Assembly (NCBI GenBank): GCA_017518185.1
Contig: JAFWWB010000088.1
Coordinates: 1-32,032 of the forward strand
Source: Lachnospiraceae bacterium
GTDB lineage: Bacteria; Bacillota; Clostridia; Lachnospirales; Lachnospiraceae
DNA: 32,032 bases
Direction of reading: 5' to 3'
Below are positions 2,287 through 23,283 of this stretch, one piece after another (the stretch's first letter is position 1; each line of letters opens with the position of its first letter). The position numbers were made by a program, and so were the translations under genes. Under the pieces are notes generated by a model. The model did no database searches. It worked only from the letters and a program-made list of their open reading frames with translations, and was not told where the DNA came from.

Positions 2287-2441
2287 AAGATCCCTCGACT
2301 TCGCGGGCTTCGCCCGCTACGCTCGGGATGACATGTATATATGCTGCGTGCCCTTCGCTCGGGATGACATGTATATATGCTGCGCGCCCTTCGCTCGGGA
2401 TGACATGTATATATGCTGCGCGCCCTTCGCTCGGGATGACA
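2287..2441 (-). repeat. SRDL/HPERS-type palindromic repeat array upstream of greA
   Basis: The array has a 47 bp core at 2287-2333 (AAGATCCCTCGA...CGGGATGACA) containing the palindrome GCGGGC-TTC-GCCCGC and outer ATCCC/GGGAT arms. Three 36 bp units follow (2334-2369, 2370-2405, 2406-2441). Each runs TGTATATATGCTGCG, then GCCCTTCGCTC, then GGGATGACA; the first unit differs from the others by a single base. Read on the minus strand in one frame it encodes repeats of CHPERRARSIYT, which is a spurious peptide. The core is adjacent to the greA start (33 bp away) and the extra units lie towards the promoter. Similar elements occur before argF, pfkA and dnaJ. Confidence 0.9.
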
Positions 2442-2462
2442 TAGTTTTCGTAAGGACATCTA

Positions 2463-2491
2463 ATTATATGGATTTATGCCTGTCCTGTCAA
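2463..2491 (-). promoter_or_regulatory. Consensus sigma-A promoter for greA-lysS
   Basis: On the minus strand TTGACA (2486-2491) is separated by exactly 17 bases from TATAAT (2463-2468). Both hexamers are perfect matches to the sigma-A consensus. The promoter overlaps the last codons and stop of dus. Transcription would begin near 2456, just before the repeat array, which would then form the 5' leader of greA. Confidence 0.8.
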
Positions 2492-3445
2492 GCTTGCGCA
2501 GAGCTCTTCCAGGTCGGAGAGACTCTCCATTTCCGAGGCGCGGCGTCTGAGCTCCGCGGCACCCGAAAATCCTGTGAGATACCAGCCCGCATGCTTACGC
2601 ATCTCGTGTATGCCGGTATAGCTTCCCTTGTACTTTACCAGAAGCTTTGCATGCTTCAGCATCATGGCTGCCTTTTCGGCCCCGTCCGGTTTCGGAAGCG
2701 TTTCTCCCTTTTCGAAATACGTTCTCAGCTCCCTGAATATCCAGGGATTGCCTCTGGAGGCCCTGCCTATCATTATGCCGTCAGCCCCTGTCTCTTTAAG
2801 GCATTTCTCCGCAGCTTCAGGGGAATCTATATCGCCGTTGGCTATGACCGGAATGCTCACAGCCTCCTTTACAAGGCGTATGATCTCCCAGTCTGCCTTT
2901 CCGGAGTAATACTGCTCCCTGGTCCTGCCGTGTACCGCTATGGCGGCGGCTCCTGCGTCTTCCAGACGTTTGGCCATTTCCACGGCATTTACGTGGGCCT
3001 CATCGTAGCCCTTGCGTATCTTTACTGTCACCGGCTTTTTCACGGCTGCTGCCACCTTTTTAACTATGGCCGCGGCCAGCTCCGGATCCTTCATAAGGGC
3101 GCTGCCTTCGCCGTTATTCACGACCTTAGGCACAGGACAGCCCATGTTTATATCAAGCAGATCGAAGCGCAGATCTTCTATCATCCCGGCGGCTTCCGCC
3201 ATTATATCCGGCTCACAGCCGAAAAGCTGGAGACTTAAGGGACCTTCTTCCGGATCAGACTCCATCAGCTCCCGGGTATTCCTGTTATGGTAGGTTATGG
3301 CCTTTGCGCTCACCATTTCCATGCAGCAGAGGCCTGCTCCCGCTTCGCTGCACAGGAGCCTGAAGGCCGTATCCGTGACTCCCGCCATGGGAGCCAGTAT
3401 CAGCGGCATATCCAGGCTGAAGCTTCCTATGTTTAACGGCTTCAT
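2474..3445 (-). CDS. dus: tRNA-dihydrouridine synthase (DusB type)
   Basis: This flavoenzyme reduces uridine to dihydrouridine in the tRNA D-loop using NADPH and FMN. The 323-residue product begins with the flavin-binding strand [16 protein letters not shown]. It contains the family signature [13 protein letters not shown], with the catalytic cysteine at about residue 103, and the C-terminal TIM-barrel phosphate-binding segments NGDI and [16 protein letters not shown] helical domain completes the C terminus. It starts inside the coaX stop (ATGA overlap), so it is translated as the last gene of the argF-birA-coaX run. The greA promoter lies across its 3' end. Confidence 0.93.
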
Positions 3446-4218
3446 GCCCTTCCGCTGTTCTTCTCGTATATCAGGCGCAGGCCGTCAAGCGTCAGCATGC
3501 GGTCATACACGTCTATGAGCTTTGTCTCATCGGCTATGATGGAACCGAGACCGCCGGTGGCAACCACCTTCATGTTCTCAAGTCCGGCCTCTTCCTTAAC
3601 CTTTTTGATGATATACTCCGTCTGGCCTATCTGGCCGTATACAAGGCCCGCCTGCATACTGGTGATGGTGTTCTGGGCCAGGATGGAATCCGGCTTTTTT
3701 ATCTCCACCTCAGGCAGCTTTGCGGTATCCTCCCAGAGGGCCTTGGCACTTATCTTTATGCCGGGTGCGGTTATACCCGCAAGGAATTCGCCTTTTTCGC
3801 TGATAAGGTCGTAGGTGGTGGCGGTGCCGAAATCCATGACCAGCACGGGACCGCCGTATTTTTCATAGGCGCCTACGGCGTCCACTATACGGTCCGGACC
3901 GATCTCCTTAGGATTCTCGGTAACTATGTGTATGCCGGTCTTAAGGCCGGGCCCCACGATCATGGGCTTTTTATTCAGATAGCGCTCGATGCTGCCAACC
4001 AGTGCATGCATGACGTTTGGCACAACGGAAGCCACGATGACCCCGCTTATATCATCAACCTCTATGCCGTTATACTTAAGAAGCCCAAGGGTCATCCCGC
4101 CATACTCATCGGAAGTCCTTGCGCTTCCAGTCATGAGACGGAAGGTCGACTTAAGGCTGCTGCCGTCGAAAGCTCCAAAGGTAATATTTGTATTTCCCAC
4201 ATCTATAGCAAGAAGCAT
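3442..4218 (-). CDS. coaX: Type III pantothenate kinase
   Basis: CoaX phosphorylates pantothenate with ATP, the first step of coenzyme A synthesis, and is not feedback-inhibited like the type I enzyme CoaA. The 258-residue product carries the ASKHA-fold signatures AIDVGNTN at the N terminus, GPGLKTG, the catalytic [12 protein letters not shown] segment and ATGGLG near the C terminus. An in-frame GTG lies three bases further out at 4221, but it abuts the GGAGG ribosome site, so I prefer the ATG at 4218, which overlaps the upstream stop as TGATG. It is followed by dus with an ATGA overlap. Neighbouring birA places two cofactor-related genes in one operon. Confidence 0.93.
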
Positions 4219-4571
4219 CACTCCACCTCCGTAATATCCTCATGCTTTACCAGCACCCTGTAATACAGGCTCAGGGATTCAAAAAGCTCCCTGCGCTTCT
4301 GCCTGATCTGCCCGACAAGAAGGCCGGCCGAGACCTCGTCATACAGGTAATCCTCATCTGCGGCTATGGTGTCCATGGACACGCTGCCGTCGTCCTCAAA
4401 GACTATGGTAATAATGCCTCCCACCTCTTCGGTAAACAGGACGCAGATCACATGAAGCTCTTCTTTTATACTCTCGGGAAGATTCCCGAACTCCGCCTCG
4501 TTGAAATAGTATTTCTGCTCGTAGGCGTTGGCGCCGCACAGAACGCTGCGGCCGTTATCAGTTTCAGACAT
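4218..4571 (-). CDS. Conserved hypothetical protein, DUF6145-like
   Basis: This is a 117-residue acidic, soluble protein with no signal peptide or membrane segment. Visible blocks are [15 protein letters not shown] near the N terminus, the hydrophobic [16 protein letters not shown], and a C-terminal helix rich in Arg, Lys and Glu. The pattern fits the small Lachnospiraceae family that I recall as DUF6145, whose function is unknown; I could not verify this by search. The gene overlaps birA by 8 bases and coaX by one base at the chosen start, so it is translationally coupled to both. The tight packing suggests a constitutive housekeeping role, but nothing in the sequence reveals the activity. 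Confidence 0.75.
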
Positions 4572-5559
4572 AACCGTAAATACCTCTTACGGACACCTCT
4601 CCGGAGGCCACACAGCTTACGCTCCCGTCGGGAAGCCTCACTATGAGCTCACCCTTATCGTTGATGCCCTCTGCTTTTCCTTCATATTCACCCTTGGGAT
4701 CAAGCACCCTGACCTCCCTGCCACGGTTGATCAGATAGCTGTCATAGATATGCACAAAATCAGAGACATCCAGCCTCTGACGGAAGATATCAAAATAATA
4801 CTCAAAAAACTCCATCACGCCAACGATGATCTGGGCGCGGTCAACACGCTCGCCAAGCTCCAGCTTTATCGAAGTGGCGATATCCGCGATCCCTTCGGGG
4901 AAGGAGCTCTGGTTGACATTTATCCCCACACCGGTGACCACATGATGTATGAAATCCGGCTCTGCGCTCATCTCCGTGAGTATGCCGCAGACCTTCTTCT
5001 CATTTATAAGGACGTCGTTGGGCCACTTGATGTTGACCTTCAGGTCCTGGTAGAGATTACTGAGCACCTCAGCCACGCTGACAGCCATGAGGAGGGTGAG
5101 CATGGAGGCACGGTTCGGTGAGAAATCCGGGCGGAGGATCAGGGACATGAATATGCCTTCTCCTGCGGGGGATTCCCAGCCACGGCCCCTGCGGCCTTTT
5201 CCCGCGGTCTGGGCATCGGCTACCACAAGGGAGCCGTGGTCCATGCCTTCCTCCGCCAGATATTTTGCATCCTCATTGGTAGACTCGGTCTCTTTCCTGA
5301 AGTAGACCTTTGTTCCGGCCCATTTTGTCTTCATGCGGCTCATGAGCTCGCTGCCGGAAAGAGTATCGGGATAGCTTAAGAGCATGTAACCGCGGTTGTT
5401 CACGGCCTCGATATCATAGCCCTCAGCCTGGAGCTGCTTGATGACCTTCCATACCGCGGTACGGGACACGCCGTATCTGTCGCAGAGCTCCTGACCTGAG
5501 ACGTAATCCGTGCTCTCACGGATGGCCCTTAAGATGTCCGCCTTGATGCTTACTGCCAT
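4564..5559 (-). CDS. birA: Biotin--[acetyl-CoA-carboxylase] ligase with repressor HTH
   Basis: BirA activates biotin as biotinyl-AMP and attaches it to the carboxyl-carrier lysine of biotin-dependent carboxylases. The 331-residue product is of the bifunctional type. An N-terminal winged helix (about residues 5-60, with YGVSRTAVWKVIKQLQAEGY) can bind the biotin operator, so it probably also represses biotin genes. The catalytic domain contains the biotinyl-AMP loop GKGRRGRGW (about 120-128) and IKWPNDV. A C-terminal SH3-like domain follows (about 275-331). It begins three bases after the argF stop and overlaps the next small gene, which fixes it in the argF transcript. No biotin operator is obvious nearby. 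Confidence 0.94.
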   Translation of the reverse strand: MAVSIKADILRAIRESTDYVSGQELCDRYGVSRTAVWKVIKQLQAEGYDIEAVNNRGYMLLSYPDTLSGSELMSRMKTKWAGTKVYFRKETESTNEDAKYLAEEGMDHGSLVVADAQTAGKGRRGRGWESPAGEGIFMSLILRPDFSPNRASMLTLLMAVSVAEVLSNLYQDLKVNIKWPNDVLINEKKVCGILTEMSAEPDFIHHVVTGVGINVNQSSFPEGIADIATSIKLELGERVDRAQIIVGVMEFFEYYFDIFRQRLDVSDFVHIYDSYLINRGREVRVLDPKGEYEGKAEGINDKGELIVRLPDGSVSCVASGEVSVRGIYGYV

Positions 5560-5562
5560 ATA

Positions 5563-6552
5563 TCAGAAACCCAGGGTGGCCGCCATAACAGCCTTTATGG
5601 TGTGCATGCGGTTTTCGGCTTCCTGGAAGACCTTTGACTGAGGACTTTCGAAGACCTCGTCGGTGACCTCCATATCCTGTATGCCGTACTGCTCGCCCTT
5701 TTCTTTTCCGGTCTCGGTCTTAAGGTCATGGAAGGCAGGGAGGCAGTGGAGGAAAATGGCGCTGTCCTTTGCATGGGACATAAGCTCCTTCGTCACCTTG
5801 TAGGGGCTGAGTTCCCTGATGCGCTCTTCCCATATCTCATCGGGCTCGCCCATGGAGACCCATACGTCGGTGTAGATGATATCCGCATCCTTTGCTGCTT
5901 CCTCGGCGCTCTCGGTAAGAGTGACTGAACCGCCGCTCTCCTTTGCGTACTCCCTGCAGACCTCCACAAGAGCGGGGTCGGGGAAGTACTTCGCAGGCGC
6001 TGCTGCCGCAAAATGCATGCCCATCTTGGTGCAAAGTATCATAAGCGAATTGCCGGTGTTGTACCTGGCGTCGCCCATATATGCGAGCTTAAGGCCCTTG
6101 TGATCCCCGAAGACCTCGCGTATGGTGAGGAGATCGGCCAGCATCTGGGTGGGATGGTATTCGTTGGTAAGGCCGTTCCAGACGGGAACAGCGGAATACT
6201 TCGCAAGTTCTTCAACCTTTTCCTGACCGAAACCGCGGTACTCTATGCCGTCAAACATGGAAGAAAGTACACGGGCGGTATCAGCCGTGCTCTCCTTCTT
6301 TCCTATCTGGGAGCTCTTGGGATCCAGATAGGTGCAGCCCATGCCCAGGTCGTGGGCTGCCACTTCAAAGGAGCAGCGGGTACGGGTGCTTGTCTTTTCA
6401 AAAATAAGGGCTATATTTTTTCCGCGAAGGCGGTCTACGGGAACGCCTTCCTTTTTCTTCTTTTTAAGATCGGCCGCGAGATCCGTGAGATAGAGGATCT
6501 CCTCTGCGGTGAAGTCTCTGAGTGTGAGAAAGTCTCTGCCTTTTAAGTTCAT
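5563..6552 (-). CDS. argF: Ornithine carbamoyltransferase
   Basis: The enzyme joins carbamoyl phosphate to ornithine to give citrulline, in arginine synthesis or, in the reverse direction, in arginine catabolism. The 329-residue product has the carbamoyl-phosphate site STRTR (residues 55-59), HPTQ (133-136), and the ornithine-binding SMG and HCLP motifs in the C-terminal domain. I start it at the ATG at 6552 ([10 protein letters not shown]), preceded by AGGAGG. The frame stays open 65 codons further upstream, but that extension only translates the palindromic repeat array into [16 protein letters not shown]-type peptide and should not be annotated. It heads the argF-birA-coaX-dus run and has its own promoter beyond the array. 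Confidence 0.95.
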
Positions 6553-6565
6553 GGTTCCTCCTGAT

Positions 6566-6746
6566 AAGATCCCTCGACTTCGCGGGCTTCGCCCGCTTCG
6601 CTCGGGATGACATTGTGTGCGGGCCGTTGGCCTGCTCCGCCCGCGATGACATTGTGTGCGGGCCGTTGGCCTGCTCCGCCCGGGATGACATTGTGTGCGG
6701 GCCGTTGGCCTGCTCCGCCCGCGATGACATTGTGTGCGGGATGACA
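6566..6746 (-). repeat. SRDL/HPERS-type palindromic repeat array upstream of argF
   Basis: The 47 bp core at 6566-6612 differs from the greA core at one base. Three 39 bp units follow (6613-6651, 6652-6690, 6691-6729), each beginning TTGTGTGCGGGCC and ending GATGACA. A fourth unit is shortened to 17 bp (6730-6746), keeping only TTGTGTGCGGGATGACA. Units one and three carry GCGATGACA and unit two GGGATGACA. The core lies 13 bp from the argF start codon. The predicted promoter ends next to the last unit, so the whole array should be transcribed as leader RNA. Confidence 0.92.
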
Positions 6747-6749
6747 AGA

Positions 6750-6778
6750 ATGATACTACATTTCAGTCTGTATTTCAA
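6750..6778 (-). promoter_or_regulatory. Sigma-A promoter for the argF operon
   Basis: On the minus strand TTGAAA (6773-6778) and TATCAT (6750-6755) are separated by 17 bases, matching consensus at five of six positions each. The promoter lies directly after the terminator of the cell-wall hydrolase gene. The predicted start point near 6743 falls at the outer end of the repeat array, giving a leader of about 190 nt before argF. I saw no clear arginine-repressor operator, though one cannot be excluded. Confidence 0.65.
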
Positions 6779-6780
6779 TT

Positions 6781-6805
6781 AAAAAAACAGCGGCCTTACG
6801 GCCGC
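6781..6805 (-). terminator. Intrinsic terminator of the SleB-type hydrolase gene
   Basis: On the minus strand GCGGCC-GTAA-GGCCGC forms a 6 bp GC stem with a four-base loop, followed by TG and seven T residues. It starts 13 bases after the hydrolase stop codon. The argF -35 box follows within three bases of the T run. Confidence 0.85.
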
Positions 6806-6818
6806 CGCATTACTTTCT

Positions 6819-7964
6819 TTACCAGAAGACGTGGGCGCCGATCACTATGCCGTCATGCTTGCCGGCCCGCCTGAAGTACATGGCGTTTCCTACGTTGGAG
6901 TAGCCGTTAAGGGCTTCCTGTGCGGCCTGCAGGCAGCTGGGATTCACGCCCACTGCTATCTGCTTATCCACATGGCCCGTACCTGCGGGAGTGAACTGGT
7001 AAGGCGCATAGATGACGCCGTAGATGGTGTTGGGATATGCGCCGCAGCGTACACGGTTCATGACTACCGCACCTACAGCGACCTGGCCTTCGTAAGGCTG
7101 GTTTCCGGCTTCACACTGTATAAGTGCACCCAGCAACACGACATCGGATGCATCCGCTGCATACTTGCCGTAATACTGCTCTTTTCTTGCTGCGGTAGCT
7201 GCGGAGGAAGAGGCTTTCCTGGAAGCCTTTGCTGCCTTTTCCTTAGCTATCCTCTCGGCTTCCATCCTGGCCTGGATTGACTCGACCGTCTCACCCTCGC
7301 CTACGTGGAAAGCAACCTCTGCGTAGTCAGCGCTGATATAGCCGTTCTCGCCGTCATAATCGATCTCGACCCAGCCGTTCTCCTGTGAAAGGACCTCGTA
7401 GGTCTCGCCCTTGTTCACAAGACCGTAGATATCAGCTTCGGCATCGGGAGCTTTTCTCACGCGAAGATTCTCGGCGGTGATAAACGCCTGATCCGTACCT
7501 ATCTCTTTCGCAAGAGCCTCAGCCTCATCTCCGAAAAGGAGGTAGTCATTGCTGACCCAGCCCTTCAGATCACCTGTGGTGATGAGGGTCCACTCATCGG
7601 TATATTCCTCGATATAACCGCCGCAGTCCTTATAGAGCACGCCTGCAAGCGCCGCATTCTCATCTGCCTCGGCACGTACATTGACTGCGGTATTGACATC
7701 TGCCATAACAAGGGCTCCGGGAGCCTTCCAGGCATTTGCCTGCTCCTCGGCTATTATTGCAACTTCTTCACTGGTGGGGGTGGTGCCTGTCTCAACTGCT
7801 TCGGCGGCACCGGCGATAGCCTGTACAAGAACCTCGCTGCTCTCAAGCTCGGTAGCATAAGTCTCCATGGTCATCGAAGGAACATATGCTATAAGCATCA
7901 TGAGCATAGCCACTGATGACAGGATCGCGATCGTTATCTTTTGTAGTTTAACATTCTCTTTCAT
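6819..7964 (-). CDS. Secreted cell-wall hydrolase: two SH3 domains plus SleB-type (Hydrolase_2) domain
   Basis: This is a 381-residue exported protein. A signal peptide with a long hydrophobic stretch (residues 10-29) ends near AYVPSMTMETYA. Two bacterial SH3-like domains follow (about 85-150 and 155-222), the first with NVRAEADENAALAGVL and the second with NLRVRKAPDAEADIYG; these usually bind peptidoglycan. An Ala/Lys/Ser linker (about 230-262) leads to a SleB/CwlJ-like domain (about 268-381) containing LIQCEAGNQPYEGQVAVGAV and VVMNRV. That family includes lytic transglycosylases of spore germination, but many members, like this one, act on vegetative wall. I choose the ATG at 7964 behind GAGGTGG rather than the GTG at 7973, which lies within that site. 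Its promoter region carries helically phased TGTAAC repeats. Confidence 0.9.
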   Translation of the reverse strand: MKENVKLQKITIAILSSVAMLMMLIAYVPSMTMETYATELESSEVLVQAIAGAAEAVETGTTPTSEEVAIIAEEQANAWKAPGALVMADVNTAVNVRAEADENAALAGVLYKDCGGYIEEYTDEWTLITTGDLKGWVSNDYLLFGDEAEALAKEIGTDQAFITAENLRVRKAPDAEADIYGLVNKGETYEVLSQENGWVEIDYDGENGYISADYAEVAFHVGEGETVESIQARMEAERIAKEKAAKASRKASSSAATAARKEQYYGKYAADASDVVLLGALIQCEAGNQPYEGQVAVGAVVMNRVRCGAYPNTIYGVIYAPYQFTPAGTGHVDKQIAVGVNPSCLQAAQEALNGYSNVGNAMYFRRAGKHDGIVIGAHVFW

Positions 7965-8018
7965 GTAAACCACCTCTTACCACTATATCTTGTGGGACAA
8001 CCCCCGTTTTTGTGCAAC

Positions 8019-8100: not shown

Positions 8101-8154
8101 ATTTAATGTATGGTGATGATAGCACAGGGAGAATGATTTGTCAACTTTGAGAGG

Positions 8155-8184: not shown

Positions 8185-8213
8185 AAATGTATAAAGTATA
8201 CAAGATTACTGTA

Positions 8214-9008: not shown

Positions 9009-9075
9009 TTTTTTCCCCGCCGGGTGATCCGGCACTCCTTTCCCAAAATATAGGAAACGAACAAAACCATCCTGT

Positions 9076-14308: not shown

Positions 14309-17300
14309 TTACACTACATTGACTGTGATGGTTACGGTCTTGCCATCGATCTTGGCCGTAAACTTACAGCTTCCCTTTGTCCTTGCCTGCACATTTCCGT
14401 CTTCATCCACAAATGCTGCCTCCGCATTGCTGTTCCTGTAGACGACCGGCTGATCCAGATCAACATAGTCCAGAGTAAGTTCCTCGCCTGCGGCTATGAC
14501 CAGCTTATACTTATTCGTCTTGATTTTTTTCAGGTCATATTTATCATCCTCATGTACCTCTTTTAAGGAGATATCATCAACCTTTACAGTCATGGTATAG
14601 CTGCTCAGGTCTCCCTTAGCTGTCAGCGTGACGGTTCCGGGATTCTTTCCTGCGGTTACCTTTGCATTCTTGATACTTACGAACGCCTTCTCATCTTCGG
14701 TGGTTCCTTCGGCATAATCCCAGACAGTCTTCTTTACTCCTGCCAGCTTTACGGTCTTGGGAGCGCCTGCTGCCAGATGCAGGGTACGTTCTTTGACTGC
14801 AGTGGGTTCCTTTACGGTCACGGTAGCATTATATGCCACTCCGTTCGCATACACCGTGATCTTTGCACTGCCCTTTGACAGCGCCGTTACGTTACCGTCC
14901 TGATCGACCTCGGCCACATCCGGAGAAGCACTGTAATAATATACGGCAATATTTTCAGCATTTCTCAGCGCTACGCTGCCGGTATCTTTACCGCTCGAAC
15001 CCGCTTCAAGTTTAAGCTTCTTATTTGACAGTTCAGGTTTTGAGATATTTACGGAAATACTCTGTACAACGTTTCCGCTCACATCCTTCTTCACTATCAC
15101 TGCCGTTCCGGGATTCTTAACCTTTACCTTACCGTTCTTAGCCATACTGATAAGCTTCTTATAAGCCTTCAGTTTGGTACTATCCTGATCATCCAGGCTC
15201 CAGCCCTTCAGGGTAAACTTCTGTCCCTTTACCAGCCACAGCTCGGTGGTGGCATCTGTTATCACAGGCACGGGATCAAGAGCGCTGTTGCCGCTGACAT
15301 TTATATCCGGGTTATCGGGATCGCTTTTCTTGGTCCATTTTGCGTAGAGCGTGATATCGTCAGTTACGGTATCGGTGTCAAAATCCCAGGCATTCTTGCA
15401 TGCCTTTTCCTTGTACCAGCCGTCAAAGGTATAGCCCTCTGCTACAGGAGCCGTGGGTTCCGTCACCTTTCCGTCCTTTGCAACACTCTTGGCTTCCGGT
15501 GCGGTGCCGCTCACATCATTCAGGTCAAAGGATACTATACAGGCACCTGCGATCTTAGTCCACTTTGCATAGAGCCTGGTATCGGCCGTTACGGTATCGG
15601 TGTCAAAATCCCATGCATTCGTGCATTCCTTTTCCTTGTACCAGCCGTCAAAGGTATAGCCCTCTGCCGTAGGAGCAGCCGGTGCCTTAACCGTATTGCC
15701 TTCCTTAACACCCTTGTTTTCCGGTGCGTTCCCGCTTACGCTCACACCATTCAGATCAAAGGATACTACACAATAGCCCTCTATTCTTTTCCAGCTTGCG
15801 TAGAGTGTGGTGTTGCCCGATACCCTGTCTTCGGAAAAATCCCACTTTTCCGTACATCCTTTATCTTTATACCAGCCACCAAAGGTATATCCTGCTGCTT
15901 CCGTATACTTCGGTGTCGTCAAAAGGCTGCCATCCTCGACACTCTGGGGTTCCGGCGCTTTTCCGTCTACACCGTTCATATCAAAGGTTACGGTATAGAT
16001 TTCCGGTTTTTGGGTCCATTTTGCATAGAGCGTGGTATCGTCCTCCACAGTATCAGTGCTAAAGCCCCATCTGTTCGTACAGGCCTTTTCTCTGAACCAG
16101 CCGCCAAAATTATAGTCTTCATCCGTCGGAGCTGTGGGTTCCGTGGCCTTTCCGCCTTCTTTAACACTCTGGGCTGCCGGCGCAGTCCCGCCATGACCGT
16201 TCATATCAAAGGATACGGTATAAGAAGCAGATTGGGCTTCAGACCAGTCTGCCCACAAAGTCATACTGCTGCCGTCTACCGTATCTGTAGCAAAATCCCA
16301 CTTATTCTCAAGGCCTTCTTCCGTATACCAGCCTTTGATAACATATCCTTTCACGGCTGCCGGTTCCGTCACTTTTCCGCCCTTCTCCACAAACTGGTTC
16401 GGAATGACACTGCCTGCACCTTTAAGCTTAAAGGCTACATTACATATTCCTGCTGTATCTGTTAATCTTACCTCTGCCGGTGCACTGGCAAGGTCGCTCT
16501 CCTTTTCTCCCCTGACATCCTCTGCCAGAATGTATACATGATAATCCTTGCCCCAGGTACCTTTCACATTTCCAGCCAGTGAAAACATACCCGTGCCATT
16601 AAGCGTAAACTCACTCTTATTCCTCGAAAGCTCTGTATACTGGAGCAGCTTCGCCCCATCGCTCCAGCCTTTGTCCGTCCATGTGCCGTCTGTCACCACT
16701 ACAGAAACCCTGTCAGGCTCGGCATCGCTGTTGTCTACGACCCCATACGATAATGCGTAACCATTGCCACTTTTCCTGGCCACGGACGGGCCTATGGCCA
16801 GGCCTTCATCCTTAAGCGTAAGCTTATATTCCGGAATGAACCAATTATCCCAGTCTTCAAGCGGAGCAGCCGGATCAAAATCCGCAGGCGGATCATTGAG
16901 CATGGAAGAAAAGATGACGGATGAACGCTTGACGTTAAAGACAGGGCTCACGCCTCCCCTCGATTCACTGTAAGGACCATGATCTACGAAGCCACCGCCT
17001 ACAAATGCGACATCTGCATAGGAATAAACATCCCCGTCGTATGAATAATTTCCTTCCGCCTTTGACCTCAGCCAATAGCAACCATTATATCCCCCTTCTT
17101 TGTTGCAGAAAGTGCCCCACGAATTCTCCGGATCAATAAGAGAATAATCATAATAACCGTAATCGCGCCTCATCACTTCCGCATAATCCAGAACGAAAAC
17201 ACGGTCATGGGAAAGAGGCGTAAACGTACTCCAGCCCTCAACATCTTTAGCTGATCTGTCACTCTTGCTGCTTGACGCGATGGCCGTCCTTTCGGCATCT

Positions 17301-17734
17301 GTAAATACAGCCGGACTGTTCAGGAATTCACTGCCGTTAAGCCAGGCCCTGAGCTCACTGTCAGCCCACACCACGCTGTCATCATCAAAGCGCATTTGCT
17401 TAATAACAGTGTCGCAGTCCAGAAGGAGGCTTCCGCCGTTCACTCCGAACTCGTCCGAATCGTTATCCAATACCCGGTATTTGAGCGGAGTATTATTATA
17501 ATTTCCGTAATACACATAGCAGCCGCTCCAGGGTTGCGAGCCTTCCTCCATGTACCAGAGCCTGTCATATCCCCTCGGATCGATGATGGACCCGGTGCCA
17601 AGGCTAAGGCCCGTCATCGTCTTCTCCCACGCCGCGTGTGCATCAATTTTGGGGACAGACAGATCCCCCACGCAGAGTGTAAGCGTCATCAGCGCAGTGA
17701 CCAGGCGGTTTACTTTCCGGTTTCTTATTTTCAT
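14309..17734 (-). CDS. Large secreted surface protein: DUF6273, five InlB-type repeats, Ig-like tail
   Basis: This 1141-residue exported protein has a signal peptide (about 1-34, ending DAHA). A DUF6273-like domain spans about 75-275, with LLLDCDTVIKQMRF, WADSELRAWLNGSEFL and GCYWLRSKAEG. A middle beta region (about 300-425) leads to five InlB B / Listeria-Bacteroides repeats (about 432-497, 504-573, 579-648, 653-725, 731-800), each ending like WDFDTDTV...TLYAKW. The C terminus has bacterial Ig-like domains (about 903-976, 980-1052, 1076-1141). There is no LPXTG sorting signal or SLH domain, so how it is retained is unclear; it may be released or held by charge. The role is probably adhesion or substrate contact. 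A GGGAGG ribosome site and a near-consensus promoter precede it. Confidence 0.88.
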   Translation of the reverse strand: MKIRNRKVNRLVTALMTLTLCVGDLSVPKIDAHAAWEKTMTGLSLGTGSIIDPRGYDRLWYMEEGSQPWSGCYVYYGNYNNTPLKYRVLDNDSDEFGVNGGSLLLDCDTVIKQMRFDDDSVVWADSELRAWLNGSEFLNSPAVFTDAERTAIASSSKSDRSAKDVEGWSTFTPLSHDRVFVLDYAEVMRRDYGYYDYSLIDPENSWGTFCNKEGGYNGCYWLRSKAEGNYSYDGDVYSYADVAFVGGGFVDHGPYSESRGGVSPVFNVKRSSVIFSSMLNDPPADFDPAAPLEDWDNWFIPEYKLTLKDEGLAIGPSVARKSGNGYALSYGVVDNSDAEPDRVSVVVTDGTWTDKGWSDGAKLLQYTELSRNKSEFTLNGTGMFSLAGNVKGTWGKDYHVYILAEDVRGEKESDLASAPAEVRLTDTAGICNVAFKLKGAGSVIPNQFVEKGGKVTEPAAVKGYVIKGWYTEEGLENKWDFATDTVDGSSMTLWADWSEAQSASYTVSFDMNGHGGTAPAAQSVKEGGKATEPTAPTDEDYNFGGWFREKACTNRWGFSTDTVEDDTTLYAKWTQKPEIYTVTFDMNGVDGKAPEPQSVEDGSLLTTPKYTEAAGYTFGGWYKDKGCTEKWDFSEDRVSGNTTLYASWKRIEGYCVVSFDLNGVSVSGNAPENKGVKEGNTVKAPAAPTAEGYTFDGWYKEKECTNAWDFDTDTVTADTRLYAKWTKIAGACIVSFDLNDVSGTAPEAKSVAKDGKVTEPTAPVAEGYTFDGWYKEKACKNAWDFDTDTVTDDITLYAKWTKKSDPDNPDINVSGNSALDPVPVITDATTELWLVKGQKFTLKGWSLDDQDSTKLKAYKKLISMAKNGKVKVKNPGTAVIVKKDVSGNVVQSISVNISKPELSNKKLKLEAGSSGKDTGSVALRNAENIAVYYYSASPDVAEVDQDGNVTALSKGSAKITVYANGVAYNATVTVKEPTAVKERTLHLAAGAPKTVKLAGVKKTVWDYAEGTTEDEKAFVSIKNAKVTAGKNPGTVTLTAKGDLSSYTMTVKVDDISLKEVHEDDKYDLKKIKTNKYKLVIAAGEELTLDYVDLDQPVVYRNSNAEAAFVDEDGNVQARTKGSCKFTAKIDGKTVTITVNVV
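15361..15668 (-). repeat. Near-identical 225 bp-spaced DNA repeats inside the surface-protein gene
   Basis: The segments encoding the last two InlB-type repeats (DNA around 15361-15432 and 15586-15668) are almost identical. Shared blocks include ACGGTATCGGTGTCAAAATC and CCTTGTACCAGCCGTCAAAG. The offset is 225 bases, i.e. 75 codons, one repeat unit. The other three repeats have diverged more. This suggests a recent duplication or gene conversion within the array. Confidence 0.75.
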
Positions 17735-17792
17735 GATCTACCTCCCTTTTGTTTCAAGAAGTAAGCTGTGTTTCAAGATAAAAACCCATTAA

Positions 17793-17821
17793 AGTATATC
17801 ACTCAAGGAATTTTGTGTCAA
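17793..17821 (-). promoter_or_regulatory. Promoter of the 1141-residue surface-protein gene
   Basis: On the minus strand TTGACA (17816-17821), 17 bases, then TATACT (17793-17798). The -35 is perfect and the -10 matches five of six. The first T of the -35 box is the last base of the T run of the upstream gene's terminator, so terminator and promoter overlap. Confidence 0.75.
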
Positions 17822-17860
17822 AAAAAAACTGAGGACAGGTCCTCAGCACCGGTCCTCAGT
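17820..17860 (-). terminator. Intrinsic terminator of the SpoU-family methyltransferase gene
   Basis: ACTGAGGAC (17829-17837) pairs with GTCCTCAGT (17852-17860), or alternatively with the nearer GTCCTCAG (17839-17846), giving a choice of stems. On the minus strand it is followed by nine T residues. The stop codon of the methyltransferase (17856-17858) lies inside the distal stem arm, so a terminating ribosome would overlap the hairpin. Confidence 0.8.
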
Positions 17861-18659
17861 TGTAGCCGCGCTGGCGGGCGGCTTCGTATAACAGTAATGA
17901 TGCGCTTACGGAAGCGTTCAGGGACTCTGTCTTCCCCGCCATGGGGATGAAGAGACAGCCGTCAGCCGCGGCAATGGTCTCCGGCTTTAAGCCCTTTCCT
18001 TCGTTGCCGACGATGAAGGCGCAGCCGCCGGTGAGATCCGCTTTGCTGAAGCACTGCGCCCCTTCCATGGCTGCCGCGTATATCTTTACTCCCTTCGAAC
18101 GGAGAGTGCCGAAGCAGAAGCTTAAGTCCCTGAGCTTCATAAAGGGAAGACGGAAGAGGGCTCCCATGGTGGAGCGCACCACCTTGGGGCTGTGGATATC
18201 GGCGCAGTCGCCTCCGAGTATCACGCCTGTGGCTCCCGCAGCTTCGGCGGAACGCATGACGGTCCCGAGATTTCCCGGATCCCGCAGATCCTCAAGCATA
18301 ATGATAAGGGGCTTCCTGTCAGGGGGGATAAGCTCCTCCCAGCTATGCTCCCGCTGCTTAACCACAGCCAGCACCCCCTGGGGGGTTACCACATCCGACA
18401 TCTTAGCAAAGACATCGTCTTTTACCAGGAAGGCCTTTTCACTTGCGAGCATTTCCTCGGCCCGTGCCGCGCTGCCTCTCTCCCTTAAAAGAGAAAGGCC
18501 GCCCTCCGTCAGGTAAAGCTCGCTTATCAGGCCATCCTCTATCTCCTCGAAGAGACGGGCGCCCTCAGCGATGAAGAGCTTTTCCTCCTCCCGCGCCGAT
18601 GCTTTTTTACCGAGCAGCGCCGCGTGCTTTATCCTTTCGTTGGCGGCTGAGCTTATCAC
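17856..18659 (-). CDS. SpoU/TrmH-family RNA 2'-O-methyltransferase
   Basis: The product is a 267-residue SPOUT methyltransferase that transfers a methyl group from S-adenosylmethionine to a ribose 2'-hydroxyl in rRNA or tRNA. An N-terminal substrate-binding domain (about 1-95, beginning with the family pattern NERIKHAALLGKKASAREEE) precedes the trefoil-knot domain. The latter has motif 1 EDLRDPGNLGTVMRSAEA, motif 2 FIVGNEGKGL and motif 3 IPMAGKTESLNASVSASL. The layout resembles RlmB and TsnR-type 23S rRNA enzymes; the exact target base cannot be read from sequence. The start is a GTG overlapping the pfkA stop (GTGA), so it is translated with pfkA. Confidence 0.92.
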   Translation of the reverse strand: MISSAANERIKHAALLGKKASAREEEKLFIAEGARLFEEIEDGLISELYLTEGGLSLLRERGSAARAEEMLASEKAFLVKDDVFAKMSDVVTPQGVLAVVKQREHSWEELIPPDRKPLIIMLEDLRDPGNLGTVMRSAEAAGATGVILGGDCADIHSPKVVRSTMGALFRLPFMKLRDLSFCFGTLRSKGVKIYAAAMEGAQCFSKADLTGGCAFIVGNEGKGLKPETIAAADGCLFIPMAGKTESLNASVSASLLLYEAARQRGYN

Positions 18660-19633
18660 AGTATCTTGCTCACCTCATACTCATATTCGTTGATGCTCTT
18701 TTCCATAGCCAGGGCCTCGTCGATATCGAAATCCACGAACTGGCCGTTCTTCTGGGCAACAACCCTGTTGCTCTTGCCGGCGCTTAAGAGATCTGCCGCA
18801 ATGGCCCCCATTATGGAAGCATAGTACCTGTCCTTGCAGGTGGGGGAACCGCCGCGCTGCATGTAGCCGAGTATGGTTGCCCTGGTCTCCATGCCTGTAG
18901 CTGCCTCTATACGTCTTGCCATGGAGGTGGAGTGGCCTATGTCCTCGGCATTGATTATGATGTGGTGCTTCTTGCCCTGCTTGCGGTTCTCGATTATATG
19001 GTTGATTATGCGCTGTTCGTTGTAATCATATTTCTCGGGAAGGAGTATATCCTCCGCTCCGTTTGCAACGCCGCACCAGAGAGCTATGTAGCCGGCGCCG
19101 CGGCCCATGACCTCGATGATGGAGCAGCGCTCGTGGGAGGAAGAGGTATCCCTTACCTTGTCGATGGCTTCCATGGCCGTGTTGATGGCGGTATCGAAGC
19201 CTATGGTATAGTCAGTGCAGGCGATGTCCAGGTCTATGGTCCCGGGCAGGCCCACAGTGTTTATGCCTTCATGGGCAAGCTTCTGGGCGCCCCTGTAGGA
19301 GCCGTCGCCGCCTATGACCACTATGCCGTCGATGCCGTGCTTGCGGCAGATCTCCGCGCCCTTCTTCACGCCCTCTTCGGTGCGGAATTCGGCGCAGCGG
19401 GCCGTGCCCAGGATGGTGCCGCCCAGGCCTATGGTCTCGGAAACGGAACGCTTGTCCATGTCGATGATCTCTTCGTTCAGCAGGCCCTGATAGCCCTTCT
19501 TTATACCCTTTACACTCAGGCCGTTGGCTATGGCCTTACGCACTACGGCGCGGATGGCTGCGTTCATTCCGGGAGAATCGCCTCCGCTGGTGAGAACGCC
19601 TATGGTGCGGATCTTTTTTTCGGATGTTTCCAT
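18656..19633 (-). CDS. pfkA: ATP-dependent 6-phosphofructokinase
   Basis: PfkA phosphorylates fructose 6-phosphate to fructose 1,6-bisphosphate, the committed step of glycolysis. The 325-residue product has VLTSGGDSPGMNAAIRA at the N terminus and GGDGSYRGA (108-116). The glycine after GGD indicates ATP rather than pyrophosphate as donor. PGTIDLDIACTDYTIGFDT is the catalytic loop, with Leu where Escherichia coli has Asn; I recall this from other Clostridia. EVMGRGAGYIA and MQRGGSP follow. I start at the ATG at 19633 behind GAGGT. The frame stays open for 73 more codons, but these translate the palindromic repeat array (CHPGLRMT-type peptides). It is followed by an rRNA methyltransferase gene with a four-base overlap. 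Confidence 0.95.
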   Translation of the reverse strand: METSEKKIRTIGVLTSGGDSPGMNAAIRAVVRKAIANGLSVKGIKKGYQGLLNEEIIDMDKRSVSETIGLGGTILGTARCAEFRTEEGVKKGAEICRKHGIDGIVVIGGDGSYRGAQKLAHEGINTVGLPGTIDLDIACTDYTIGFDTAINTAMEAIDKVRDTSSSHERCSIIEVMGRGAGYIALWCGVANGAEDILLPEKYDYNEQRIINHIIENRKQGKKHHIIINAEDIGHSTSMARRIEAATGMETRATILGYMQRGGSPTCKDRYYASIMGAIAADLLSAGKSNRVVAQKNGQFVDFDIDEALAMEKSINEYEYEVSKIL

Positions 19634-19653
19634 GTGTTTATACCTCGCTTTGT

Positions 19654-19846
19654 AAGATCCCTCGACTTCGCAGGCCTTCGGCCTGCTACGCTCGGGATGA
19701 CATATTACGTGCGTCGTCATGCGCAGCCCGGGATGACATATTACGTGCATCGTCATGCGCATCTTGTGATGACATATTACGTGCGTCGTCATGCGCATCT
19801 TGTGATGACATATTACGTGCATCGTCATGCGCAGCCCGGGATGACA
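19654..19846 (-). repeat. SRDL/HPERS-type palindromic repeat array upstream of pfkA
   Basis: A 49 bp core (19654-19702) has the stem GCAGGCC-TTC-GGCCTGC in place of the GCGGGC-TTC-GCCCGC seen elsewhere. Four 36 bp units follow (19703-19738, 19739-19774, 19775-19810, 19811-19846), each TATTACGTGCRTCGTCATGC plus a variable part ending GATGACA. Units one and four carry CAGCCCGG and units two and three CATCTTGTG, so variants are mirrored. The core is 20 bp from the pfkA start. The outer end stops two bases before the stop codon of the upstream GH28 gene. Confidence 0.92.
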
Positions 19847-19848
19847 TA

Positions 19849-21417
19849 TCAATTGTACTCTAAACCTGTTGTACTTATTTTGTCAACAGCTGTAAGATCG
19901 GGAGCGGTGTCGGCGGAGCCTTTTATGCTCACGTTTTCTATATCCAGCTCCTTCACGTTCTTAAGTACGAGACTGCGGCCGGAAAGCTTCGGGAAACCGT
20001 CCATCATTATGGGACACTGGGGCGTCCTCTTTTCCTCCGGAAGATATTCAGCCCTGATATCCTTTAAGCTTATCCTTCCGATGGGAGCCTCGGGAAGACC
20101 GTATGCGCAGACCAGGCTTGCGTCCACGCCGCTGCAGTCCGCATTACGCAGTTCTATGCCGCCTATCTTCGGCGTACGGAAATCCACGGGAGCCGGGGAC
20201 TGGTCCTGCACATAGGAGGAATGTCCGTCCGGATCGCAGAAATAAAACATGTTCATGGTGACGGGCATATGCACCCCGTCCATAGTTATATCTTCAAAAA
20301 GAAGGCCTTCCAGCACGGAGCGTTCGCCCCTGCCCCTTCTGGTCTTTATCCGCACGCCCCTGTCGGTGCCACGGAAGATGCACTTCGATACATGCACATT
20401 CTTTACGCCTCCGGCCACCTCGCTGCCTACGGTAACGGAACCGTGGCCGCTCTCAAGGAGGCAGTTGCGTACGGTGATATTTTCCGTCTCTTTATGATGA
20501 TACTTTGCCATGTAGAGCTTGCCGCTCTTGATGGCTATGCAGTCATCCCCAACGGAGATGCGGGTTCCCAGCAGCAGCACGTCCCTGCAGCTCTCGGGAT
20601 CGAAGCCGTCCGTATTGGGGGAATCCGCCGGATTTTCAATATCCAGGTCAAAGAATCCGAGCCTGTCGGAATAATATGGATGCAGGGCCCAGCAGGGCGA
20701 ATTCCTGAAATGCAGCCCGCAGAGCCTGATATCCTTCGAATTTATTATGGAAAGGAGCTTGGGTCTCCAGGCTGTGCGCTTCGTACGCACGTCCTGCCAC
20801 CAGTCTCCCGCGGCGGCGTTGCCGTCTATGGTGCCCCTGCCGAAGATGTCCACGCCTTCGGCGTTAAGCACCGTTATCAGGGAGGCAAAGGAATCCAGAG
20901 GGTTCCCCTCCCAGGAAGCTATATTGTATTCTATGTCGTTATCGTAAAGATTTCTTATGATACCCGGAAGCACCGGATATCTGCTCCTGTCGGCAAAGCC
21001 GAGGATGGTGGCGCCCTCGTCCACCCAGAAGCTCATATTGCTCTTAAGGAACAGGGGGCCCGTAATATACGTCCCCTTTGATATATGCACCGTGCCCTCT
21101 TCCGGGCAGGCCATTATCGCCGCCTGGAGAGCGGCAGTGTCATCATGCACACCGTCTCCCACGGCTCCGAAGGCGGAGACCTCCAGAAGGAAGCTCTCAT
21201 GCCTTGTGGTAAAGCCAATCTTTTCATTTCCCGGCTCAAAGGAAAGCTCATAAGCCCTGTCAGGTTCAAGGCCGTCAACGGTGATCACGTTTCTGTCGGT
21301 TTCAAAAAGAAACTCACCATCAAGAAAAACGCGATAAGGCTCGGGACTGAAATACCGTCCCGGGCCCTCGCGCTCTATCACTGCACTTCGTTTAAAGATC
21401 TGCCTTACGCTGTACAT
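19849..21417 (-). CDS. Glycoside hydrolase family 28 (polygalacturonase-like), cytoplasmic
   Basis: GH28 enzymes hydrolyse alpha-1,4 bonds of galacturonan by inversion. The 522-residue product has an N-terminal beta-sandwich-like region (about 1-75) and a right-handed beta-helix opened by VSAFGAVGDGVHDDTAALQAA (about 80-100, read with the preceding residue). All catalytic signatures are present: NTDGFD (258-263), GDDCIAIKSG (280-289), GHG (314-316) and RIK (356-358). No signal peptide is visible, so it probably acts inside the cell on imported oligogalacturonides as an exo-enzyme. I start at the ATG at 21417, five bases after the rubrerythrin stop; upstream codons only read through that gene. 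The ribosome site is weak (AAAAAG). It may be co-transcribed with rubrerythrin. Confidence 0.9.
   Translation of the reverse strand: MYSVRQIFKRSAVIEREGPGRYFSPEPYRVFLDGEFLFETDRNVITVDGLEPDRAYELSFEPGNEKIGFTTRHESFLLEVSAFGAVGDGVHDDTAALQAAIMACPEEGTVHISKGTYITGPLFLKSNMSFWVDEGATILGFADRSRYPVLPGIIRNLYDNDIEYNIASWEGNPLDSFASLITVLNAEGVDIFGRGTIDGNAAAGDWWQDVRTKRTAWRPKLLSIINSKDIRLCGLHFRNSPCWALHPYYSDRLGFFDLDIENPADSPNTDGFDPESCRDVLLLGTRISVGDDCIAIKSGKLYMAKYHHKETENITVRNCLLESGHGSVTVGSEVAGGVKNVHVSKCIFRGTDRGVRIKTRRGRGERSVLEGLLFEDITMDGVHMPVTMNMFYFCDPDGHSSYVQDQSPAPVDFRTPKIGGIELRNADCSGVDASLVCAYGLPEAPIGRISLKDIRAEYLPEEKRTPQCPIMMDGFPKLSGRSLVLKNVKELDIENVSIKGSADTAPDLTAVDKISTTGLEYN
19857..19886 (-). promoter_or_regulatory. Possible pfkA promoter in the 3' end of the GH28 gene
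   Basis: On the minus strand a perfect TTGACA (19881-19886) is followed at 18 bases by TAGAGT (19857-19862); TACAAT lies a little further on at 19852-19857. Transcription would begin around the GH28 stop codon, directly before the repeat array. The -10 assignment is uncertain. Confidence 0.4.
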
Positions 21418-21421
21418 CTTT

Positions 21422-21961
21422 TTAGCCGAAATATCTGTCCAGCAGGCCCTTGAAAGCCTTGCCGTGTCTTGCTTCATCCCTTGCCATCTCGTGAACCGTG
21501 TCATGGATCGCATCCAGGTTCAGCTCCTTCGCACGCTTAGCAAGGTCAGTCTTGCCTGCCGTAGCGCCGTTCTCGGCATCAACCCGGAGCTCGAGATTCT
21601 TTTTGGTGGAATCGGTGACCACCTCACCCAGCAGCTCGGCAAACTTCGCTGCATGTTCGGCCTCTTCGTATGCAGCCTTTTCGTAATACAGGCCGATCTC
21701 GGGATAACCCTCGCGGAAAGCGACCCTTGCCATAGCGAGATACATGCCTACTTCGGAGCACTCGCCCTCGAAATTGGAGCGGAGATCCTTAAGGATGTCC
21801 TCCGGAACACCCTTGGCTACTCCTACAACATGCTCTGAAGCCCAGGTCAGCTCACCTGACTGTGCCTTGAACTTCTCTGCCGGTGCATGGCAGATGGGGC
21901 ATTCTGCAGGGGGATTGTCTCCCTCATGGACATAGCCGCAGACAGAACATACATACTTCAT
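21422..21961 (-). CDS. Reverse rubrerythrin (peroxide-scavenging)
   Basis: This 179-residue non-haem iron protein reduces hydrogen peroxide in anaerobes. A rubredoxin domain is at the N terminus, with Cys5-x2-Cys8 and Cys21-x2-Cys24 ([22 protein letters not shown]). A ferritin-like four-helix domain follows (about 55-179) with the di-iron ligand patterns [16 protein letters not shown] (99-103) and DEARH (161-165). The rubredoxin-first order defines the reverse rubrerythrins, such as those induced by oxygen in Clostridium acetobutylicum. It lies 27 bases after dnaJ behind CAGGAGGTAGAG, with no terminator between, so it is probably an extension of the chaperone operon and shares its stress control. 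Confidence 0.93.
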
Positions 21962-21988
21962 ACTCTCTACCTCCTGGTTATAAAATTT

Positions 21989-23158
21989 TTAAAACAGTTT
22001 TCTCTTTTTCTTTTTGCCGGCATCAGATATATCACCGTTCCGCTCGGCCCGGAAGCGCTCCGCCGCATGGAGGGAGTCTCCGCATTCGGCATCGAATTGT
22101 CTCAGCAGCTCCTTTGCCTTTGCGCTCATATGGAGCGGGACCTGTATCACAAGCAGTACGTAATGGTCTCCTCTGGTCTTGGGATCCCGGAGGAACGGAA
22201 CTCCCTTGCCCTTTAAGCGCACTCTCGTATCCGTGGTGGTCCCGGGCTTCACCTCGTAGGTGACCGGCCCGTCCACCGTATCTATCACTATCTCGCCGCC
22301 CAGTGCAGCCACAGCATAGGAAATGGGCACTGTGGAAAAGATGTTCTGATCCTCCCTCTGGAAGATGGGATGATTGGCCACGACAGCCTCCACCAGAGCG
22401 TCTCCCCTCGGCCCGCCGTTGGTCCCGGGTTCACCCAGGCCGCTGATGCGCTTGCACTGGCCGTTGTCCACACCGGCCGGGAACTCCACGGGGATCTTTT
22501 TCCTCATGGGTACATAGCCACCGCCGTGGCAGGAAGGGCATTTATCACGGATCACCTTTCCGGTGCCTCCGCAGTCGGGGCAGGCCTGCACGTTCTGCAT
22601 CACTCCGAAGAGAGACTGCTGTGAGAACACCACCCGTCCCTTGCCGCCGCACTTGGTACAGGTATCCACGCTGGTGCCCGGCCTTGCGCCGGTGCCGTTA
22701 CAGGTGGTGCAGGTCTCCTTAACGGTAAGCTCCACCTCTTTGGTGCAGCCGAAGACCGCCTCCTCGAAGGTCATCCTGGCCACAGCGCGGACGTTGGCGC
22801 CCTTTGCAGGGCCTGTACCGCCGCCCCTGCGCCTGCTGCCGCCGAATATATCGCCGAATATATCACCGAATATATCCGTAAAGTCCATGGAGCTGAAGCC
22901 CCCGAAGGGATTGCCTCCGCCCATACCGCCTTCGAAGGCCGCATGCCCGAACTGGTCGTACTGCTTGCGCTTCTCGGGATCCGAGAGGACGCCGTAAGCC
23001 TCCGATGCCTTTTTGAATTTTGCTTCGGCTTCCTTGTCGCCAGGGTTCATGTCGGGATGATACTTCTTGGCAAGCTTACGGTAGGCCGCCTTTATGGTAG
23101 CGTCGTCAGCACCCTTCTCAACACCCAGTATCTCGTAATAATCTCTCTTATCTGCCAC
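21989..23158 (-). CDS. dnaJ: Chaperone protein DnaJ (Hsp40)
   Basis: DnaJ delivers unfolded proteins to DnaK and stimulates its ATPase. The 389-residue product has a J domain (1-70) with the HPD motif at 34-36, a Gly/Phe-rich linker (about 72-118), and a zinc region with four CxxCxGxG-type motifs (Cys150, 167, 193 and 207). Two C-terminal substrate-binding domains follow. The last zinc motif reads CPSCHGGG. In the linker the tandem [12 protein letters not shown] is encoded by three nearly identical 12-base units (22841-22876). The start is GTG at 23158 with only a weak ribosome site. A palindromic repeat element lies between dnaK and dnaJ and may lower DnaJ relative to DnaK. Confidence 0.97.
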
Positions 23159-23210
23159 TTTGGGTCACTTCTTTCTCTAGTTACTTACAGTTATAGTGTA
23201 TTCCGGTAAA

Positions 23211-23283
23211 AAGATCCCTCGACTACGCTTCGCTCCGCTCGGGATGACACTGTTCTGTGGGCTCCGCTACGCTCGGGATGACA
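23211..23283 (-). repeat. Short SRDL/HPERS-type palindromic element between dnaK and dnaJ
   Basis: A 39 bp core (23211-23249) begins AAGATCCCTCGACTACGC and ends CGGGATGACA. It lacks the central long stem of the other three copies. One 34 bp unit (23250-23283), CTGTTCTGTGGGCTCCGCTACG plus CTCGGGATGACA, follows. It begins eleven bases after the dnaK stop codon and lies 52 bases before the dnaJ start, in the same orientation relative to transcription as the other three arrays. Confidence 0.88.

What the first reader, a model, noticed from the sequence alone, without database searches (positions are those of the whole stretch)
2287..23283. Four palindromic repeat arrays share orientation and a fixed place between promoter and start codon
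Elements with the same core (AAGATCCCTCGA...CGGGATGACA) lie before greA (2287), argF (6566), pfkA (19654) and dnaJ (23211). All four face the same way relative to transcription. The core lies 13-52 bp from the downstream start codon, and the expanded units always lie on the upstream side. At greA and argF, and probably pfkA, a sigma-A promoter ends just before the array, so the array becomes a structured 5' leader. Elements of this kind are known as interspersed repeats that give spurious HPERS-type peptides, but such a consistent leader position suggests selection or targeted insertion. A regulatory role in translation or mRNA stability is inference.
Basis: partly seen in the sequence, partly recalled or inferred. 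Interest (0 to 1): 0.72.

Follow-up and report, generated by a model that had tools for sequence, protein, structure and literature searches.

The report
Palindromic repeats invading gaps between genes
The four arrays belong to a large family of short palindromic repeats that has spread through this bacterium, mostly between genes but sometimes inside proteins; their shared orientation is unremarkable in this genome, yet in sampled sister species a relative of the repeat almost always points the same way before a gene's start.

Summary
In detail: four elements at the stated coordinates, one orientation, cores 13-52 bp before start codons, extra units on the far side. The stretches examined of this genome hold 118 such elements in 88 clusters. 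In gaps between same-direction genes the AAGAT end faces the start codon in only 20 of 33 clusters, so four of four is unremarkable. Position is uniform along the gap once a ribosome-site zone is excluded; the four leaders fold no better than shuffled sequence. Fifteen clusters lie inside reading frames, one in DnaE, where 27 congeners lack the insert. Stems co-vary with almost no G-U pairs, suggesting a DNA-level palindrome; no target duplication and no Y1 (RAYT-type) transposase was found. Arrays seem to grow by tandem duplication of the tagged half plus flank. Closest known kind: CGTC-tagged REPs, with clear differences. The surprise lies in sister species: a 28-nt relative faces the start codon in 76 of 78 usable clusters, usually 13-33 nt before it.

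The parts
2287..2333 (+). element 1 core (47 nt), AAGAT end towards the greA start
   Evidence: E 1.1e-17
2334..2441 (+). three 36-nt tandem units on the GGGATGACA side of element 1
2463..2491 (-). promoter-like TTGACA-17-TATAAT before greA, upstream of the array
   Evidence: 12 of 12
6566..6612 (+). element 2 core (47 nt), AAGAT end towards the argF start
   Evidence: E 1.0e-17
6613..6746 (+). 39-nt tandem units of element 2 plus a short last unit
6750..6778 (-). promoter-like TTGAAA-17-TATCAT before argF
   Evidence: 10 of 12
19654..19702 (+). element 3 core (49 nt), AAGAT end towards the pfkA start
   Evidence: E 9.3e-16
19703..19846 (+). four 36-nt tandem units of element 3
19857..19886 (-). 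promoter-like TTGACA-18-TAGAGT before pfkA (weak)
   Evidence: 10 of 12; 0.6 expected in shuffles
23211..23249 (+). element 4 core (39 nt), between dnaK and dnaJ
   Evidence: E 2.6e-13
23250..23283 (+). one tandem unit of element 4

Best explanation
The four arrays are copies of a non-autonomous, TGTC-tagged palindromic repeat (like the CGTC-tagged REPs) that has multiplied in this genome and survives mainly where it does least harm, in the short gaps between genes and outside the ribosome-site zone. It behaves as a DNA-level palindrome: a conserved 5-bp outer stem (ATYCY/RGRAT), a bulge, and a variable apical stem whose two arms change together. Arrays form on the spot by tandem duplication of the tagged half of the element with its adjoining flank. 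Shown: copy number, covariation, empty sites at greA and dnaE, in-frame copies, the tandem-duplication signature over 59 arrays. Inferred: that it moves (by an unidentified, non-Y1 route, perhaps through single-stranded or replication intermediates), that the stems are kept at DNA rather than RNA level, and that most copies in this genome are tolerated passengers rather than regulators. In sister species an additional orientation rule applies that this explanation does not account for.
For: 118 elements scoring at least 25 of 28 in the stretches examined, against a maximum of 21 in one shuffle of them; 124 covariance-model matches in the genome. Patchy in the genus: 24 of 34 congeners have no match, five have 1-2, five have 13-143. 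Empty sites: 22 of 22 resolved dus-greA gaps, of 29 congener loci fetched; DnaE insert absent in the 27 of 29 aligned congener sequences that cover the site. Covariation: 94.2% of cells paired, 108 double-change cells against 28.7 in shuffles, slid structures 29-43% paired, one G-U among 701 paired cells. No orientation bias in the own genome (20 of 33) and uniform position. Clusters inside genes: 15 of 88 although called coding sequence fills 91.5% of the stretches. Array unit ends match the outer flank above shuffled pairing over 59 arrays (5.0 against 3.2 of 12, 0 of 500 shuffles). No Y1 transposase in the genome, and in only 9 of 26 other element-bearing genomes.
Against: No target duplication (best direct repeat 1.67 against 1.59 in shuffles), strand bias or target motif was found, and only Y1 transposases were searched for, so movement is not demonstrated. 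Full-length (47/49-nt) elements lean towards the start codon (22 of 30, p 0.016; post hoc). AAGAT ends lie closer to stop codons than tag ends do (medians 2 and 19.5, p 0.009), a polarity not explained. Three of the window's own four arrays do not show the unit-flank match (scores 3, 1, 4; pfkA 7). In sister species orientation is nearly fixed (76 of 78), which plain tolerance does not predict.
Confidence: 0.7

Rival explanations
1. The element is a functional 5' leader: its orientation and place before the Shine-Dalgarno are selected because it tunes translation or mRNA stability.
For: Sister species: 76 of 78 usable clusters face the start codon. In sense orientation the element carries no AUG and ends in an SD-like AAGGAU or GAGGGAU; the reverse orientation carries GGAUGACA with an AUG (read from the sequence). 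Own genome: 22 of 30 full-length elements. One orthologous site in two sister species keeps core and leader identical while the tandem unit differs (L289, L274, by eye).
Against: Own genome 20 of 33 overall; leaders fold no better than shuffles; greA site empty in 22 of 22 resolved congener gaps; almost no G-U pairs in the stems, unlike a structure kept at RNA level.
Confidence: 0.15
2. Insertion itself is oriented, for example into single-stranded DNA exposed by transcription, and the window's species has since blurred the rule by secondary copies.
For: Near-fixed orientation among near-identical copies in sister species; palindrome with Watson-Crick stems; no target duplication.
Against: No enzyme identified; the sampled sister copies were the best-scoring ones, so their near-identity is partly by choice; selection after insertion would give the same picture.
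Confidence: 0.25
3. An ordinary REP/REPIN family moved by a resident RAYT (Y1) transposase.
For: Tagged palindromes, intergenic, paired copies.
Against: No Y1_Tnp match in the 99.77% complete genome; none in 17 of 26 other genomes carrying the element; tag is TGTC, not GTAG.
Confidence: 0.04
4. Conventional MITE of a DDE insertion sequence with target duplications.
For: Short, mostly non-coding, inverted ends.
Against: No target duplication in 21 single copies; whole element is one hairpin with unlike ends. DDE transposases were not searched for.
Confidence: 0.04

Closest known systems
CGTC-tagged REPs (Di Nocera et al. 2013, PMC3733652; parts 1-6 of 8 read)
   Same: unpaired CGTC/TGTC tag at one end, stem starting with A-T pairs, 3-nt tail, high copy number, patchy among species, intragenic copies, no associated transposase
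   Different: bipartite 5 + 6 bp stem with a bulge instead of 8-9 bp; tail CTT not CCA; dimers in this genome have tags inside (18 against 2) not outside; tandem arrays are frequent; almost no G-T pairs; the paper names five phyla, none of them the one of Clostridia
Rickettsia palindromic elements RPE-4/RPE-6
   Same: palindromes in frame in protein genes, R. conorii DnaE among them; the paper equates them with CGTC families
   Different: host and sequence; here most copies are intergenic with tandem expansion
REP/REPIN with RAYT (GTAG family)
   Same: tagged hairpins, paired copies, gaps between genes
   Different: no Y1 transposase found, different tag, G-T stem pairs nearly absent where the paper finds them often
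Neisseria dRS3
   Same: the paper lists it as a CGTC-1 repeat
   Different: not compared here by sequence

Membership tests
CGTC-tagged REP | CGTC (or TGTC/CCTC) unpaired tag at one end | tested here: met
   consensus ends in GACA, i.e. TGTC on the other strand
CGTC-tagged REP | stem begins with complementary A-T residues at positions 1 and 2 | tested here: met
   AU 78 of 78 and UA 77 of 78
CGTC-tagged REP | stem of 8-9 bp, loop of 4-5 | tested here: not met
   5-bp outer stem, bulge, variable apical stem
CGTC-tagged REP | 3-nt tail, mostly CCA | tested here: inconclusive
   3-nt tail present but CTT
CGTC-tagged REP | dimers mostly with tags outside (HH), TT rare | tested here: not met
   own genome TT 18, HH 2; but met in loci of other genomes: HH 50, TT 6, and in B. 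aquikefiri: HH 47, TT 3
CGTC-tagged REP | clusters rare | tested here: not met
   45 of 88 clusters have tandem units on the tag side
CGTC-tagged REP | not associated with a transposase | tested here: inconclusive
   no Y1_Tnp in the genome; other transposases not searched
CGTC-tagged REP | intragenic copies | tested here: met
   15 of 88 clusters
REP/REPIN-RAYT | GTAG tag and resident RAYT | tested here: not met
MITE | target-site duplication | tested here: not met
   21 single copies; no exact empty site was available
cis-regulatory 5' leader RNA | conserved at orthologous genes | tested here: not met
   greA 0 of 22; dnaK-dnaJ gap holds a family member in 3 of 28 congeners, plus one chance-like 2-mismatch tag; argF, pfkA not tested
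cis-regulatory 5' leader RNA | effect on expression | not testable with these tools
   no expression data

The most novel reading that the evidence does not exclude
A TGTC-tagged palindrome with no transposase yet found, present with the same core in several phyla, is laid down or kept in relatives of this bacterium in a single orientation upstream of the Shine-Dalgarno (76 of 78 usable clusters face the start codon), that is, a mobile leader whose insertion or retention is directed by transcription or translation; in the window's species the rule has broken down and copies now also sit at stop codons and inside reading frames.
Probability: 0.3. Interest if true: 0.8.

Novelty: new variant of a known kind. 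Interest (0 to 1): 0.58.

Why it matters
How palindromic repeats without a known transposase spread is a question left open by the 2013 survey of CGTC repeats (PMC3733652). This genus offers a natural experiment: 24 of 34 other species genomes with no match and five with many, one subfamily nearly fixed in orientation before start codons and another not.

Tried and rejected
Rejected: conserved regulatory leader at greA (empty in 22 of 22 resolved congener gaps). Rejected: RAYT-driven REPs. Rejected: MITE with target duplication. Rejected: element selected to be open in many frames; open frames 4.48 of 6 against 4.43 in shuffles. Rejected: local dispersal; nearby copies are no more alike than distant ones. 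Rejected: strand bias by GC skew (30 of 61). Not found: the exact core in viral contigs (0). Led nowhere: literature searches for the core sequence (two unrelated papers), for HPERS (German words), for Clostridia with CGTC repeats. The taxon of the genome was not identified by any search.
Full report
What is there. The four elements are at the stated places and in the stated orientation. Each has a core running AAGATCCCTCGACTNCGC ... GCTNCGCTCGGGATGACA of 47, 47, 49 and 39 nt, followed on the GGGATGACA side by tandem units with periods of 36, 39, 36 and 34 nt. The genes on the AAGAT side start 33, 13, 20 and 52 bp away. A perfect promoter precedes the greA array, weaker ones the argF and pfkA arrays, none the dnaJ array.

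Genome-wide picture. I took 66 stretches around hits of a pattern search and of a covariance model, called genes with a codon-usage script of my own and found 118 elements scoring at least 25 of 28; none scored 22-24 and one shuffle of the same sequence reached 21. They fall in 88 clusters: 73 between genes, 15 inside genes. Of the 73, 68 have a called gene on both sides: 52 in same-direction gaps, 8 divergent, 8 convergent, that is 76, 12 and 12% against 80, 16 and 4% of the length of gaps without clusters. Of the 45 clusters with one AAGAT end and one tag end, 33 lie in same-direction gaps; the AAGAT end faces the start codon in 20 (p 0.30), in 16 of 29 outside the window, so four of four has a chance of about 0.09. 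RNA folding of the four leaders gives z-scores of +0.42, -0.95, -0.94 and +1.19. Results that point the other way: full-length elements of 47 or 49 nt face start codons in 22 of 30 cases and others in 12 of 32 (Fisher p 0.006, found after the fact), and AAGAT ends are nearer to stop codons than tag ends (medians 2 and 19.5, p 0.009, 38 of 45 clusters used).

A palindrome. In 79 aligned cores (78 distinct) the outer stem switches between CCC/GGG, TCC/GGA and CCT/AGG and the apical stem changes in both arms together: 94.2% of 744 cells pair, 108 double changes against 28.7 expected, and sliding the partner by one to three columns drops pairing to 29-43%. Of 701 paired cells one is G-U; pair types are fewer than in shuffles (14 against 18.3), which fits the missing G-U types. 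Over all 118 elements the outer stem is Watson-Crick at 589 of 590 positions, but my detector had required four of five; the apical stem of the 63 elements of 45 nt or more has 323 Watson-Crick, 1 G-T and 54 mismatched positions. Structures kept as RNA normally pass through G-U (general knowledge), so I read this as a constraint or a copying process acting on DNA; that is inference.

Pairs. Where two elements lie within 200 bp, tags face inwards in 18, outwards in 2, and 11 run in the same direction. Inward pairs have different stem subtypes in 17 of 18 cases, same-direction pairs in 2 of 11 (Fisher 5e-5; random pairing p 0.00035, shuffling within the inward pairs p 0.0018). Tandem copies are thus sisters, while inward pairs with equal stems seem to be missing, as expected if long perfect palindromes are removed; the 2013 survey noted such heterodimers and suggested protection from clearance. 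Against a general rule: in loci from other genomes outward pairs dominate (50 against 6 inward and 5 same-direction) and only 22 of the 50 are unequal, because 25 of 27 from one rumen genome are equal. In Bifidobacterium aquikefiri 94 of 120 model matches lie in 47 outward pairs with a median spacer of 22 nt, against 3 inward.

Array growth. Units lie on the tag side in 93 cases and on the other in 3; in the first sister sample 55 and 1. In 59 arrays of the own genome and relatives the sequence ending a unit resembles the flank just outside the array (5.0 of 12 against 3.2, 0 of 500 shuffles). Many single arrays do not show it, three of the four in the window among them (scores 3, 1 and 4; pfkA 7). 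Overall this supports arrays arising in place by tandem duplication of the tagged half plus flank, and explains why the expanded units lie on one side.

Inside genes. Fifteen clusters lie in open frames. Both sides score as coding in all 15, but in 7 one side is weak (under 0.1 per codon). DnaE carries about 41 extra residues with three HPERSAE repeats where the 27 congener sequences that cover the site, of 29 aligned, have a short turn; the closest solved enzyme (2hpi, Thermus by recall) has three residues between the aligned parts. A MoaA-like protein carries four HPE[RQ]S units between its two parts that align to a solved MoaA; congeners were not compared there. By recall of sequence, others are FtsK, Dxr and LarC; several begin with what looks like a signal peptide followed by an acidic stretch. 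Not all 15 cluster lengths are multiples of three; cluster borders are not insertion borders.

Empty sites. At dus-greA 29 congener loci were fetched, 22 gaps were resolved and none holds a tag with up to 2 mismatches; TATAAT is exact in 16 of the 23 gaps, own included. At dnaK-dnaJ 28 of 29 congener gaps were resolved; three (L215-L217) hold family members and one a chance-like match. argF and pfkA were not compared.

Relatives. In the genus 24 of 34 other genomes have no model match, five have 1-2 and five 13-143 (only 150 candidates are scored per genome, so high counts are lower bounds, and some genomes are incomplete). The sister form is AAGATCCTTCGCTTCGCTCAGGATGACA. From 60 stretches around well-scoring copies in four species I got 69 clusters, 65 between genes; 49 had one AAGAT and one tag end with neighbours within 600 bp, 43 in same-direction gaps, and 42 of these face the start codon (p 1e-11). 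Many show ATCTT, a few bases, then an AGGAGG-like site and ATG (by eye). I then fetched 40 further stretches as a test: 57 new clusters, 38 usable, 35 in same-direction gaps, 34 facing the start codon; the exception seems to have a degenerate partner that faces the start. Clusters with two AAGAT ends or a partial end (14 of the 57) were left out. Distances to the start lie at 13-33 nt in 53 of 78 cases listed. Own genome against the first sample: Fisher 4e-5. The samples are of near-perfect copies and mostly from two species (G001, G031). Fixed orientation means either oriented insertion or strong selection, for instance against the AUG that the reverse orientation puts before a gene. I cannot separate these.

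Wider occurrence. A core with 30 fixed bases occurs exactly in 69 stretches of the species-level genome collection, by record title from Clostridia, Bifidobacterium, Gordonibacter, several candidate-phylum bacteria, Alphaproteobacteria, a Gemmatimonadetes, a Binataceae, a Treponema and a Rhodothermales record; 26 of 26 such genomes searched hold 1-147 model matches (they were chosen for having one). The exact core is in 0 viral contigs. Y1 transposase is not found in the own genome nor in 17 of these 26.

Literature. I read parts 1-6 of 8 of PMC3733652 and the outline and three passages of PMC12306157; others only as search listings. The survey's CGTC families match in tag, A-T stem start and intragenic copies, and differ in stem, tail, dimer type and clustering. 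My searches listed no paper that I could see to describe this sequence or an orientation rule before start codons; the library lacks most subscription journals.

Verdict. Observation confirmed; regulatory-leader reading not supported in this genome; a real and unexplained orientation rule exists in the sampled sister species.

Noticed in passing
L169:2951-6526 (- strand), residues about 803-845: DnaE reading frame with three in-frame HPERSAE repeats, absent in the 27 congener sequences covering the site; the 2013 survey reports a REP in R. conorii DnaE too.
   Followed up: yes
L010:6594-7823: MoaA-like protein with an in-frame stretch of about 88 residues of HPERS repeats between its two conserved parts.
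   Followed up: partly
own genome, 18 inward pairs: Inward-facing element pairs almost always combine different stem subtypes (17 of 18), same-direction pairs rarely (2 of 11); in a rumen genome outward pairs are mostly equal (25 of 27).
   Followed up: yes
window 23159-23294 and L215, L216, L217: The dnaK-dnaJ gap holds members of this family in four species; many other congeners show, by eye, a different GC-rich hairpin there, as if the repeat had taken its place.
   Followed up: partly
L289 and L274: What looks like the same downstream gene in two sister species carries the element; core and leader are identical while the tandem unit has diverged, hinting at constraint on the core.
   Followed up: no
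L144 and L148, dus-greA gap: An unrelated palindromic repeat (CCTTCCCC...GGGGAAGG...GGATGAGG) sits in the same gap in other congeners.
   Followed up: no
L201-L213, DnaE near residue 281: Congeners' DnaE carry length-variable inserts at another site, not of this repeat type by eye.
   Followed up: no
window 15326-16333: Tandem repeats of 225-231 nt inside the 1141-codon frame 14309-17734 on the - strand.
   Followed up: no
window 6787-6808: Terminator-like hairpin with a T run just upstream of the argF promoter on the - strand.
   Followed up: no
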